Assembly (NCBI GenBank): GCA_022844015.1
Contig: JALHMO010000008.1
Span: forward strand, 1 to 64,000
Reading direction: 5' to 3'
Origin: Reyranella sp.
Lineage (GTDB): Bacteria; Pseudomonadota; Alphaproteobacteria; Reyranellales; Reyranellaceae
DNA: 64,000 nucleotides
The notes beneath the pieces were generated by a model. That model was not told where the DNA came from and searched no databases. It saw only the letters and a program-made list of their open reading frames with translations. Shown here in pieces: positions 17,068 through 20,753 of this stretch. Every line of letters begins with the position of its first letter. The stretch's first letter is position 1. A program made the position numbers and the translations under genes.

Positions 17068-17613
17068 TCAGCCGCGGGCGGCTCCTGCTGTCGGCGCGTC
17101 CTGGCGAATCGTGACGACTTCCGGCGCCTGATCGACAGTGGCGACCTTGCCTTCGGCCACCGGCCGGAACAACGCAACGGTGCCGTTCAGGGCCGGCGGC
17201 GCCTCGGGATCGAGCCGGCGCCAGCCCTGCTTCTCCCAGTAGGCCGTGTCGTTCGGCAGGACGTGGACGTAGAGCATGGTGCAGCCGCGGCTTTCGGCCA
17301 GGTTGCGGCAACGCTCGATCAGCAGGCGCCCCACGTCATGACCGCGAAAGCGCTGGATGACGCACAGCCGCTCGGGCATGGCGAAGGCCTGGAACCAGCG
17401 CATGCGCACGGTGCCTACCGGCTCCTCGCCCAGGTAGGCCACGACGTGGGTAGCGCCGAAATCGTGGCCGTCGAACTCCTCGGTGTACGGCACGTCGAGC
17501 TCGCCGATGAAGCAGGCCGCGCGCACGGCGAAGGCCTGCAGCGAGTCCTCCATCTTCATGGCGGTCCGGGTGGTGACGGGCACGCCGTCGATCGAAGCCG
17601 AGATCGTCGTCAT
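17068..17613 (-). CDS. GNAT-family acyltransferase, second of a tandem pair
   Basis: A 181-residue GNAT protein. It has the ElaA/YjcF-like opening AVRAACFIGELDVPYTEEFDGHDFGATHVVAYL, then EPVGTVRMRW and the acetyl-CoA loop near RFRGHDVGRLLIE, ending with YWEKQGWRRLD. It is clearly paralogous to the gene just upstream: both share EEFDGxDxxATHV, RxRWFQxF and EKxGxRR at the same spacing. ATG 17613 is preferred because AGGGGA lies at good distance; another ATG at 17619 is two codons earlier. It is the last gene of a three-gene leftward block with a membrane nucleotidyltransferase. The acyl acceptor is unknown. Confidence 0.85.
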   Translation of the reverse strand: MTTISASIDGVPVTTRTAMKMEDSLQAFAVRAACFIGELDVPYTEEFDGHDFGATHVVAYLGEEPVGTVRMRWFQAFAMPERLCVIQRFRGHDVGRLLIERCRNLAESRGCTMLYVHVLPNDTAYWEKQGWRRLDPEAPPALNGTVALFRPVAEGKVATVDQAPEVVTIRQDAPTAGAARG

Positions 17614-17624
17614 GGTCATTCCCC

Positions 17625-18254
17625 TCAGTTGGCGTGGCGTTCCGGACGCGGCGCGTGGGGCGCGTGCGGGTTGCTCGCGCCACGCTCCACCGACAGCTCG
17701 AGAACGCCTTCCTCGTCGAGGCGATCCTCCGGCCGGTTGACGACCATCGGCGCCGATTCGAGGGTGATGGCGTCCGCCGACGGCGCCAGGTCGCAGTAGA
17801 TGGCGTAGTACTCGTGGTCGGAGAACTTGAACACGGTGTCGTCGACGCGGCGGAAGCCCTCCTTCTCCATCATCGGCATGTGCCGCTTCTGCAGGTGGAT
17901 ATAGGCCCTGGTGTAGCCTTTGCGGCGGGCGAAATCCTTGCACCACGCGTTGAGCGCGTGGTGGATGCCGAGGCCGCGATAGCGGCGCAAGACCACGCAG
18001 CGCTCGAACTTGCAGAACGACTGGAACCAGCGCAGCCGCATCGAGCCCGCCGGCTCGCCGTCGACGTACATGATGACATGCGTCGCGGTGTAGTCGTTGC
18101 CGTCGAACTCCTCGTCGTACGGACATGCCTGCTCGCCCATGAACACGGCGGCCCGCAGCGCGTAGCACTGCAGCATCTCGTCCGACGTCGCGGCGATCTT
18201 GATGGTGACGACCGGCGTCAGGTCAGGCGGCGCCAGCGTCGATTGCATAGTCAT
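17625..18254 (-). CDS. GNAT-family acyltransferase, first of a tandem pair
   Basis: A 209-residue GNAT protein with the core ALRAAVFMGEQACPYDEEFDGND, EPAGSMRLRWFQ and the acetyl-CoA-binding RYRGLGIHHALNAW. VFxxEQ-xPY-EEFDG matches the ElaA/YjcF branch of GNATs. A C-terminal tail of about 55 residues (from ADAITLESAP) is absent from the shorter paralogue downstream and is rich in Glu, Pro and His. It starts one base after the nucleotidyltransferase stop and ends a few bases before the paralogue, so the three are almost certainly co-transcribed. Confidence 0.87.
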   Translation of the reverse strand: MTMQSTLAPPDLTPVVTIKIAATSDEMLQCYALRAAVFMGEQACPYDEEFDGNDYTATHVIMYVDGEPAGSMRLRWFQSFCKFERCVVLRRYRGLGIHHALNAWCKDFARRKGYTRAYIHLQKRHMPMMEKEGFRRVDDTVFKFSDHEYYAIYCDLAPSADAITLESAPMVVNRPEDRLDEEGVLELSVERGASNPHAPHAPRPERHAN

Positions 18255-18255
18255 G

Positions 18256-19503
18256 TCACTCCCCTTCGATCAGCACACCGTTGTCGTTCCGGAAGCGGCG
18301 GCCGCCGGCCGTCACCACCGGCAGATTCGCCGTCAATTGTCCCAGCACGTCGGTCACGACGGTCGATGTCATGCCCTTGGCGCCGCGCCGGATGGCGGTC
18401 GCCGAAACCTTGTCGCGGCGCAGGATGCGCCACGGGTAGATCCAGCCGCACTCGTCGTAGATGCCGCGCACCGTCATGCCGCCGGCATCGGTGCCGTGGA
18501 TTCCGTGCAGCCGTGCTCCCGGGTGACGCCGCCTGACCTCGGCAATCACGCCCTGGAAGCCCTTGACGTTGTAAATCTCCCGGTAAAAGACGACCTCGAC
18601 CTTCTCGCTGAGCCCGGCTTCGGCAACGGCGAGCTCGATCAAGGCACGCCGGGTCTCCGGCGGCAGGAACTGCTTGCCGGCGGGAAAGTAATCGACGTTC
18701 AGGTCGGCCTTGTCGGTCGTTTCGTAGATCTGAAATCCATTCTCGAGCCGGGCAACCCGGATCTGGCCCTTGCGGAGGGCGTCGGCATGCAGCCGCGGGA
18801 TCAAGGTCGGGTGAATGATCACCTTGTCGAGGCCGCGCTCCTCGATGGCGCGCTGGACGATCGTGAGATGGGTGTTGTGAAATGGATTGAAGGTTCCGAA
18901 GAAGACGCCGATTCCGCCCTTTGGCGCGACCTTCGAGCGGATGTCGGACAGCAGGCCAATGCCGAAAACCAGCACGCCGAAGCCGAGACCCACGACCAGG
19001 AAAGCCTCCCTGGCAAACGGCAGGCCAGCCGTGCCGAGCGCGCCCAGCACGGTGGTCGCCGACAGCCCGATCAGGACGTTGCGGTTCGCGTCGCCGAGAC
19101 CGCGTTGAAAGAGGTACAGGCCAATGTACTGGACGCCCTGGGAGGCGAGCGAGACGAGCAGCGCCGCGGCGGCGAAGCCGCCGACCGTTGCAATGCCATC
19201 GCGGTTGAGGGCGCCCCCTGCATACATGATCCAGAACACCGCCAGGTTGAACGCATACTGTGGGACGAAGCGCCCAAGCCGACCGGCTGTTACGAAACCG
19301 AAGCGGTTGTTGGCCCACAGTTCGGCTTTGTTGCTGAGCGTGGCGTAGCTTGGAAGGAATGCCCCCGTGAACACTGACACGCTTATCAGTGCGGGGTTAG
19401 TCCAACTGATATGCGCGTACGCATAACTCAGGTACGAAACCAGGGCGACCACGACCCCCAACCGGGTCGACGGGCTGCGAAAGTACTGGCCAATTTTCCG
19501 CAT
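18256..19503 (-). CDS. Membrane-anchored HIGH-type nucleotidyltransferase
   Basis: A 415-residue fusion. The N-terminal half has about six membrane helices (roughly 14-30, 38-55, 81-99, 104-131, 142-160 and 168-187). The C-terminal half, from about 197, is a soluble nucleotidyltransferase of the NadD/cytidylyltransferase type: GTFNPFHNTH (203-212) is the nucleotide-binding GxFxPxHxxH motif and VSATAIR (366-372) corresponds to the ISxTxIR motif. It should join a nucleotide to a phosphorylated or acidic substrate at the inner membrane face; the substrate is unknown. ATG 19503 is preferred; a GTG at 19584 would add 27 residues, and neither has a good ribosome site. It heads a block with two GNATs and is divergent from a LysR gene. 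Confidence 0.8.
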   Translation of the reverse strand: MRKIGQYFRSPSTRLGVVVALVSYLSYAYAHISWTNPALISVSVFTGAFLPSYATLSNKAELWANNRFGFVTAGRLGRFVPQYAFNLAVFWIMYAGGALNRDGIATVGGFAAAALLVSLASQGVQYIGLYLFQRGLGDANRNVLIGLSATTVLGALGTAGLPFAREAFLVVGLGFGVLVFGIGLLSDIRSKVAPKGGIGVFFGTFNPFHNTHLTIVQRAIEERGLDKVIIHPTLIPRLHADALRKGQIRVARLENGFQIYETTDKADLNVDYFPAGKQFLPPETRRALIELAVAEAGLSEKVEVVFYREIYNVKGFQGVIAEVRRRHPGARLHGIHGTDAGGMTVRGIYDECGWIYPWRILRRDKVSATAIRRGAKGMTSTVVTDVLGQLTANLPVVTAGGRRFRNDNGVLIEGE

Positions 19504-19793
19504 CAGAAGGGGGAAATTGGGAGATCTGCGCTCGGAATCGATGGCTGCCACCGGATCACCTACCCAACAAAGGATTGGCCTCACTGCTCAAGAGGTTTCG
19601 TCAAGCCTCTGGAAAAAAAGAGAAATTCGTACTTTACATTGAGGACTGGGCGATACCCCACCGTCAGTGAGGGAAATCACAAAGCCACAAAGAAGACGAC
19701 GTAGCCGACATCTTGCCGATAATGCTGTAGGATGTTGCACTGCTACCTGTCATTCAAGCTTCAAGCCGCACCTTTACATTATTGCATGTCACG

Positions 19794-20753
19794 ATGAATA
19801 CGACCTCTGACGGCAAGAGCAAGATTCCGAACATCCTGGGCGACTGGGATGACGTCCGGTTTTTCCTTGCGGTTGCAAAGACCGGCAGCTTCAGCGCCGC
19901 CGCGACGCAGCTCAACACCAAGCAGACGACGGTCGGCCGTCGCATCCAGGCGCTCGAGCGCCGCCTCGGCGCCAAGCTGTTCGACCGCCATCGCCACGGG
20001 ATGGAGGTGACGCCCGCGGCGCGCGGTGTCCTCGCCCAGGCGGAATCGATGCAGTCGAATGCTTCGTCGATCGAGCGACACCTCGCGGGGCTGGACCGCG
20101 AGATGGCCGGCGTCGTGCGCGTTGCCGTGACCGAGGGTCTGGCCGCGCAGTGGCTGGTGCCGCGCCTGACCGAGCTGCGGCGCCGGCATGCCGACATTCT
20201 CGTGCAGGTGATCGTCGGCGATCAGGTCCTCGACCTGGCGACACGCCAGACCGATCTGGCCATCCGCTTCTTCCGGCCGACCTCGAGCCAGCTCGTGGCG
20301 GCGCGTGTCGGTCAGTTCAGGCAGTCGGTTTTCGCCGCGCCAGCCTACATCGAGCAGTTCGGCATGCCCCGGCAGCTCGACGATCTGCACGAGCACCACA
20401 TCGTCGACCACACGACCCTGCACAATCTGCCGGCGATGAGGCCGTGGAGCGAGATCGTCGAACGCAGCACGCGCGTGGTGCTGCGGACCAACTCGTCGCA
20501 TTCGGCGATGGAGGCCGTCAAGGCGGCCTGGGGCCTGTCGATCTTCCCGAGCTACAGCAGCAAGACGGCGAACATCGTCGAGGCGCCCATCGACCTCGAC
20601 ATCTCGCGCGACATCTGGCTGGTCTCGCACGAGGAGACGAACAAGGGCGCACGCATTCGCGCCGTGATCGACTACATCCGCGACCAGTTCCGCCAGGACG
20701 AGCGCGAGTGGTTCTCCCTCTCGCACCCTTCAAACGACACTGAGGCGGCGTAG
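19794..20753 (+). CDS. LysR family transcriptional regulator
   Basis: A 319-residue LysR-type regulator. The helix-turn-helix lies near residues 15-60 (WDDVRFFLAVAKTGSFSAAATQL, then TTVGRRIQALERRLGAKLFDRH), followed by a periplasmic-binding-protein-like effector domain. ATG 19794 gives the standard distance to the helix-turn-helix; a TTG at 19782 is four codons earlier. The gap upstream (19504-19793 or 19585-19793) is unusually AT-rich for this window and must hold the divergent promoters; no clear T-N11-A palindrome stood out. The nearest likely target is the nucleotidyltransferase-GNAT block. Confidence 0.92.
   Translation: MNTTSDGKSKIPNILGDWDDVRFFLAVAKTGSFSAAATQLNTKQTTVGRRIQALERRLGAKLFDRHRHGMEVTPAARGVLAQAESMQSNASSIERHLAGLDREMAGVVRVAVTEGLAAQWLVPRLTELRRRHADILVQVIVGDQVLDLATRQTDLAIRFFRPTSSQLVAARVGQFRQSVFAAPAYIEQFGMPRQLDDLHEHHIVDHTTLHNLPAMRPWSEIVERSTRVVLRTNSSHSAMEAVKAAWGLSIFPSYSSKTANIVEAPIDLDISRDIWLVSHEETNKGARIRAVIDYIRDQFRQDEREWFSLSHPSNDTEAA

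What the first reader, a model, noticed from the sequence alone, without database searches (positions are those of the whole stretch)
17068..19584. Membrane-anchored nucleotidyltransferase coupled to two paralogous GNAT acyltransferases
Three leftward genes in tight array join a protein with six membrane helices and a HIGH-type nucleotidyltransferase domain (GTFNPFHNTH, VSATAIR) to two clearly duplicated ElaA/YjcF-like GNATs, with a LysR gene divergent. NadD-type domains are normally soluble; placing one on the membrane with two acyltransferases suggests activation and acylation of a lipid- or membrane-linked precursor. I know of no described pathway with this set. Of everything in the window this looks most like an undescribed system.
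Basis: partly seen in the sequence, partly recalled or inferred. Interest (0 to 1): 0.72.

Follow-up and report, generated by a model that had tools for sequence, protein, structure and literature searches.

The report
Membrane nucleotidyltransferase with paired acyltransferases
A soil bacterium carries a small, strictly conserved operon in which a nucleotide-transferring enzyme is built into the membrane and always travels with acyltransferase genes, most likely as the core of an undescribed pathway that makes an amino-acid-derived small molecule.

Summary
Window 17068-19551 (-) encodes a six-helix membrane protein with a cytoplasmic NadD-fold nucleotidyltransferase (NT) domain, then two paralogous ElaA-type GNATs (42% identical), with a divergent LysR gene. 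The NT domain looks active: HxxH, GxD and SATAIR motifs are invariant in 17 diverse homologues, and the model matches NadD at Z 15.6. It is not the housekeeping NadD, which lies elsewhere in complete relatives. The cluster is not incidental. Within the family the same 63 of 75 genomes hold both NT and GNAT. Of 47 distinct NT loci, 41 have a GNAT directly downstream; the other six are explained (contig end, GNAT just upstream, or FeeM-like gene in that slot). In Marininema the two are fused. Outside the genus the pair joins an M20 acylase and isochorismatase-fold hydrolase (Pseudomonas, Jeongeupia, Marininema), or a HalD-like oxygenase, flavin oxidoreductase, exporter and LuxR regulator (Methylovorus). 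I read it as the core of an undescribed amino-acid-derived small-molecule pathway: GNAT acylates an amine, the NT nucleotidylates it at the membrane's inner face. Fold, motifs, topology and co-occurrence are computed; substrates and products are inferred.

The parts
18256..19551 (-). Membrane nucleotidyltransferase gene (431 codons plus stop from GTG 19551; ATG 19503 is the alternative start, giving 415 aa)
   Evidence: conserved GTG position in relatives (ORF list)
18925..19503 (-). Six-helix membrane domain; N-in/C-in topology; invariant R78, S121, G123, G137, N142, D187
18256..18924 (-). Cytoplasmic NadD-fold nucleotidyltransferase domain: GTFNPFHNTH, HGIHGTD, VSATAIR
17625..18254 (-). GNAT 1 (ElaA-type acyltransferase, 209 aa), with a C-terminal tail shared by the out-of-genus GNATs
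17068..17619 (-). GNAT 2 (paralogue, 183 aa), seen only in Reyranella and its nearest relatives
19794..20753 (+). Divergent LysR-type regulator, probable regulator of the operon
   Evidence: divergent LysR found beside 32 of 47 distinct NT loci
19552..19793 (.). Divergent promoter region between LysR and NT; conserved among relatives, diverged in this genome

Best explanation
The operon encodes the core of a LysR-controlled biosynthetic route to a small amino-acid-derived metabolite. (1) A GNAT uses acyl-CoA, probably acetyl-CoA, to cap the amino group of an amino acid or amino-acid-like amine [inferred from ElaA/SACOL1063 kinship and from the M20 acylase partner]. (2) The membrane NT uses ATP or CTP to transfer NMP to the phosphate (or another acid group) of this capped substrate at the cytoplasmic face of the membrane [chemistry inferred from the intact NadD-type active site; location supported by topology]. 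(3) In the wider versions the conjugate is exported and uncapped by a secreted M20 acylase and processed by an isochorismatase-fold amidase, or oxidised by HalD-like and flavin enzymes [inferred from gene neighbours]. In Reyranella the partner hydrolases are not in the operon and the GNAT is duplicated, suggesting two acylation events or two acceptors. Shown by computation: domains, fold, motifs, topology, tight co-occurrence, fusion, partner genes. Inferred: every substrate and product.
For: NT fold and intact catalytic motifs. Positive-inside count 168 K/R in inner loops against 14 in outer loops over 17 homologues, putting the NT domain in the cytoplasm. Identical presence/absence of NT and GNAT in 75 family genomes. 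GNAT directly downstream in 41 of 47 distinct NT loci, the rest explained. NT-GNAT fusion of 660 aa in Marininema. Correlated divergence of NT and GNAT1 over 36 loci, Spearman 0.85. M20 plus isochorismatase partners in Pseudomonas, Jeongeupia, Marininema and L068; HalD, FAD, EamA and LuxR partners in Methylovorus and G433. GNAT profile hits ElaA and SACOL1063; [quoted passage not shown] Housekeeping NadD is separate.
Against: No substrate, NTP preference or product is known. No kinase gene recurs that would make a phosphorylated acceptor. The partner enzymes differ between clades, so the end products may too. The Reyranella operon lacks the M20 and isochorismatase genes. Correlated divergence partly reflects shared species ancestry: within Reyranella it falls to 0.57 for NT-GNAT1, similar to the LysR values. 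Both GNATs depart by one glycine from the usual acyl-CoA loop in some or all relatives.
Confidence: 0.42

Rival explanations
1. Activation of a lipid- or membrane-linked precursor: the GNATs acylate and the NT makes a CDP- or ADP-activated amphipathic head group that stays in the membrane.
For: The membrane domain is not a bare anchor: R78, S121, G123, G137, N142 and D187 are invariant across Firmicutes and Proteobacteria. Its best, weak Foldseek match is a CDP-alcohol phosphotransferase (5d92, E 0.058). A FeeM-like acyltransferase candidate occupies the GNAT slot in Paenibacillus.
Against: The CDP-alcohol phosphotransferase motif is absent in all 17 homologues; that structural match has TM-score 0.31; no lipid or glycan transfer genes recur nearby; ElaA-type GNATs are not known to use long acyl chains (from memory).
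Confidence: 0.22
2. A quorum-type signal: the GNAT (or FeeM-like) enzyme is a signal synthase, the NT modifies the signal, and the adjacent LysR or LuxR protein senses it.
For: A LuxR with autoinducer-binding domain lies beside the Methylovorus cluster; a divergent LysR is found beside 32 of 47 distinct loci; the Paenibacillus partner weakly matches FeeM.
Against: The GNATs are ElaA-type, not LuxI-type; LysR regulators commonly sense pathway intermediates; oxygenases and hydrolases suggest a metabolite rather than a simple signal.
Confidence: 0.15
3. A variant NAD- or coenzyme-type salvage route: the NT still adenylylates a pyridine or pantetheine-like nucleotide.
For: Closest folds are NadD (Z 15.6) and PPAT (Z about 14); isochorismatase-fold partners include nicotinamidases as a class.
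Against: A separate full-length NadD is present in complete relatives; profile matches to NadD are confined to the first ~45 residues; the NadD tryptophan eight residues after GAD (seen in L089-L093) is not conserved here.
Confidence: 0.12
4. A phosphonate pathway: the NT makes a CMP-phosphonate and the GNAT N-acetylates it, as in FR-900098-type routes (that comparison from memory).
For: PF01467-type nucleotidyltransferases are common in phosphonate clusters (PMC6697681).
Against: No PEP mutase in any neighbourhood; G433, which has the cluster, has no match to the PEP mutase family at all, and in Reyranella the matches stay below the cut-off and lie elsewhere.
Confidence: 0.04

Closest known systems
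NadD / NMNAT family (nicotinate-nucleotide adenylyltransferase)
   Same: Same nucleotidyltransferase fold (Z 15.6, 2.6 A over 151 residues, 21% identity to M. tuberculosis NadD) and the HxxH and SxTxxR motifs
   Different: Carries a six-helix membrane domain; family-wide HGxHGxDxGG and YFPxG motifs; profile similarity only at the N-terminal ~45 residues; NadD tryptophan not conserved; housekeeping NadD present separately
ElaA / YjcF / SACOL1063 GNAT acetyltransferases
   Same: Best PDB matches of the GNAT profile (E 4e-27 to 5e-25)
   Different: Paired with the NT; extra C-terminal tail; duplicated in Reyranella; acyl-CoA loop varies by one glycine
Nucleotidyltransferases of phosphonate and cell-surface tailoring clusters (Fom1 CyTase, PntC; PMC6697681)
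   Same: Nucleotidyl activation embedded in a biosynthetic cluster; Fom1 CyTase shares PF01467
   Different: No PEP mutase, no Lic genes; membrane-integral NT
CDP-alcohol phosphotransferases and their cytidylyltransferase fusions (e.g. PIP synthase 5d92)
   Same: Six-helix membrane domain beside a nucleotidyltransferase; weak best Foldseek match (E 0.058)
   Different: Catalytic DxxDGxxAR...GxxxDxxxD motif absent in all 17; structural match poor (TM 0.31)
FeeM N-acyl amino acid synthases
   Same: Paenibacillus partner protein matches FeeM weakly (2e-4, below cut-off)
   Different: The window GNATs are ElaA-type; P0002 matches FeeM only at 0.003, below cut-off

Membership tests
HIGH-superfamily nucleotidyltransferase (PF01467 fold) | Rossmann-like fold of NadD/PPAT | tested here: met
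   Z 15.6 to NadD over 151 residues; model pLDDT 88.9
HIGH-superfamily nucleotidyltransferase (PF01467 fold) | HxxH and SxTxxR catalytic motifs | tested here: met
   Present in all 17 homologues
HIGH-superfamily nucleotidyltransferase (PF01467 fold) | NTP-dependent nucleotidyl transfer | not testable with these tools
   Needs biochemistry
NadD (nicotinate-nucleotide adenylyltransferase) | Full-length match above the curated NCBIfam cut-off | tested here: not met
   27 bits against a cut-off of 112, over 41 of 194 positions
NadD (nicotinate-nucleotide adenylyltransferase) | Being the genome's only NaMN adenylyltransferase candidate | tested here: not met
   Separate full-length NadD-type gene in 5 of 5 relatives, E about 1e-27, 96-100 bits, somewhat under the cut-off of 112
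NadD (nicotinate-nucleotide adenylyltransferase) | Tryptophan eight residues after GAD (ring stacking, role from memory) | tested here: not met
   Present in Reyranella NadD (L089-L093); that position is G, S, R and others here (alignment)
ElaA-type GNAT | Profile match to ElaA/YjcF structures | tested here: met
   E 2e-26 to ElaA
ElaA-type GNAT | Acyl-CoA binding loop [QR]xxGx[GA] | tested here: inconclusive
   Met by window GNAT1 and most out-of-genus homologues; GNAT2 has RGHD/RGHN and some GNAT1 have RSMG
CDP-alcohol phosphotransferase | DxxDGxxARx8GxxxDxxxD motif | tested here: not met
   Absent in all 17
Phosphonate biosynthesis cluster | PEP mutase gene in the cluster | tested here: not met
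   None nearby; G433 has no match in the whole genome
Anti-phage defence system | Match to a PADLOC model | tested here: not met
   No match for any of the four proteins

The most novel reading that the evidence does not exclude
A previously undescribed family of membrane-integral nucleotidyltransferases whose membrane domain binds the acceptor, working with a dedicated GNAT as a portable two-enzyme module that builds nucleotidylated, N-acylated amino-acid derivatives at the inner membrane of Proteobacteria and Firmicutes.
Probability: 0.25. Interest if true: 0.75.

Novelty: new variant of a known kind. Interest (0 to 1): 0.55.

Why it matters
NadD-fold transferases act in core metabolism (NAD, CoA) and are normally soluble. 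A membrane-built branch that keeps every catalytic motif, is found in most sampled Reyranella genomes and recurs in Pseudomonas and Firmicutes beside amino-acid-tailoring enzymes points to an unexplored small-molecule pathway. The conserved module gives a clear handle for finding its product, and the separate NT domain makes substrate screening direct.

Tried and rejected
Housekeeping NadD: rejected, a separate NadD-type gene exists in complete relatives; in the window's own genome only a fragment at a contig edge was seen. CDP-alcohol phosphotransferase domain: motif absent, structural match weak; VIA rows for the membrane domain (best Z 6.4, to soluble glypican structures) are at noise level. 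Pfam scan of the membrane domain: only stray hits, none shared by members. Phosphonate pathway: no PEP mutase nearby. Defence system: no PADLOC match. Plasmid-borne copies: none. Reyranella isochorismatase partner: no match in the incomplete own genome; only one distant ~30% paralogue per genome elsewhere in relatives, so not counted as part. Literature: no described pathway with this set was found in ten full-text searches; subscription papers are largely absent from that library. The joint NT+GNAT alignment for folding the Marininema fusion (A3) misaligned the GNATs and was not used. Wider searches: 3 of 398 genomes across the phylum, two of which are Reyranella, and 1 of 369 in the class of G433 have the NT, so it is sporadic outside Reyranella.

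Full report
What is there. The window lies in a Reyranella-type alphaproteobacterium (the nearest named contigs are Reyranella and Enhydrobacter aerosaccus). Three leftward genes with gaps of 1 and 5 nt encode a 415-431 aa membrane nucleotidyltransferase (NT, 18256-19551), GNAT1 (17625-18254) and GNAT2 (17068-17619). A LysR gene starts in the other direction at 19794. The start of the NT is better placed at GTG 19551 than at 19584, because relatives have a GTG at the same distance from the first aligned residue.

The NT domain. Pfam and NCBIfam find only the first 33-48 residues of the domain. The AlphaFold2 model (pLDDT 88.9) aligns over residues 193-393 with NadD (Z 15.6, rmsd 2.6 over 151 residues) and PPAT (Z about 14). 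In 17 homologues ranging down to 33% identity, the HxxH motif, the aspartate of GxD and SATAIR are invariant, along with a family-specific set including H231, H336 and R346. The NadD tryptophan that follows GAD by eight residues, seen in the separate Reyranella NadD (L089-L093), is not conserved. Complete Reyranella genomes have that separate full-length NadD. So the domain should be catalytic, but probably not on NaMN.

The membrane domain. Modelled alone it gives six long helices with pLDDT 92.2. K and R in the predicted inner and outer loops number 168 and 14 over 17 homologues, which puts both ends and the NT domain in the cytoplasm. R78, S121, G123, G137, N142 and D187 are invariant, more than a bare anchor would need. 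No convincing structural relative was found: the best Foldseek match is a CDP-alcohol phosphotransferase at E 0.058 and TM-score 0.31, and its catalytic motif is absent.

The GNATs. They are paralogues (42% identity over 137 aa), and their profile's best solved relatives are PA0115, ElaA, SACOL1063 and 1q2y. [quoted passage not shown] GNAT2 orthologues were found only in Reyranella and close relatives. Both depart by a glycine from the usual acyl-CoA loop in some or all orthologues, though the rest is well conserved.

Linkage test. In 75 genomes of the family, NT and GNAT are present in the same 63 and absent from the same 12. Among 47 distinct NT loci, 41 have a GNAT homologue directly downstream on the same strand. 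Of the other six, L059 ends at the contig edge; L072 and L074 have a GNAT directly upstream; L069 and L071 have a mutually homologous protein in that slot, the L069 one weakly FeeM-like; and L070 has the start of the L071-type gene, broken in that copy. In Marininema NT and GNAT are one 660 aa protein. NT and GNAT1 divergence correlate at 0.85 over 36 loci, but within the genus only at 0.57, no better than with LysR, so that part is weak evidence. In most Reyranella the block sits beside other genes (HIT-type protein, pyruvate phosphate dikinase) than the thioesterase found here, yet stays together.

Wider neighbours. Pseudomonas (L064, L065), Jeongeupia (L066), L068 and Marininema (L067) show NT, GNAT, a CPG2-type M20 hydrolase (in several with an apparent signal peptide) and, in most, an isochorismatase-fold hydrolase; alphaproteobacterial L058 and L061 have NT, GNAT and isochorismatase. 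Methylovorus (L072) and G433 have HalD-like oxygenase, GNAT, NT, flavin oxidoreductase, EamA exporter, a further 2OG oxygenase, M20 hydrolase and a LuxR with autoinducer-binding domain; Paraburkholderia (L074) keeps HalD, GNAT, NT and flavin enzyme (the G433 genes are named by resemblance to those of L072). The shared theme is amino acid and amide chemistry. Outside Reyranella the NT is sporadic (3 of 398 across the phylum, two of them Reyranella), which suggests horizontal spread.

How it most likely works. GNAT caps an amino group; the NT, at the inner face of the membrane, moves NMP from an NTP to an acid or phosphate group of the capped molecule; in fuller clusters an exported acylase and an amidase, or oxygenases, finish the product. 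The fold, motifs, topology and gene linkage are computed results; every substrate and product is inferred. The lipid-precursor idea is not excluded, and the invariant membrane residues leave room for it.

Novelty. No described pathway with this set was found in the held library. Domains are known kinds; the membrane-integral NT bound to a GNAT is an undescribed variant as far as these searches reach.

Noticed in passing
L072:3374-4090 and L094:12251-12967: A LuxR protein with an autoinducer-binding domain lies beside the NT cluster in Methylovorus (Pfam), and a look-alike by sequence in G433, with no LuxI-like gene noticed in the stretch.
   Followed up: partly
L067:7977-9959: NT and GNAT are fused in a single 660 aa protein in Marininema halotolerans, a Firmicute.
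   Followed up: yes
L069:7196-9977 and L071:7992-10607: Paenibacillus and Enterococcus have the NT with a weakly FeeM-like or unassigned protein and a metallo-beta-lactamase-fold hydrolase in place of GNAT and M20.
   Followed up: partly
L058:6122-7387: The NT reading frame is interrupted by a stop codon near its start in this contig.
   Followed up: no
window:19552-19793: The LysR/NT intergenic region, with conserved blocks in relatives (e.g. TAACAATCGATACAAT next to the LysR start), is diverged in this genome, whose upstream flank also differs from most relatives.
   Followed up: partly
window:12764-16334: A dipeptide-type ABC transporter converges on the operon; 12 of 21 relatives show a matching permease region in the same place, judged from shadow reading frames.
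   Followed up: partly
window:21298-23339: A DTW-domain protein and a MATE-type transporter lie beyond the thioesterase gene upstream of LysR.
   Followed up: no
L079 (G000:C50:1-204): The housekeeping nadD of this genome is cut at a contig end in the assembly.
   Followed up: yes
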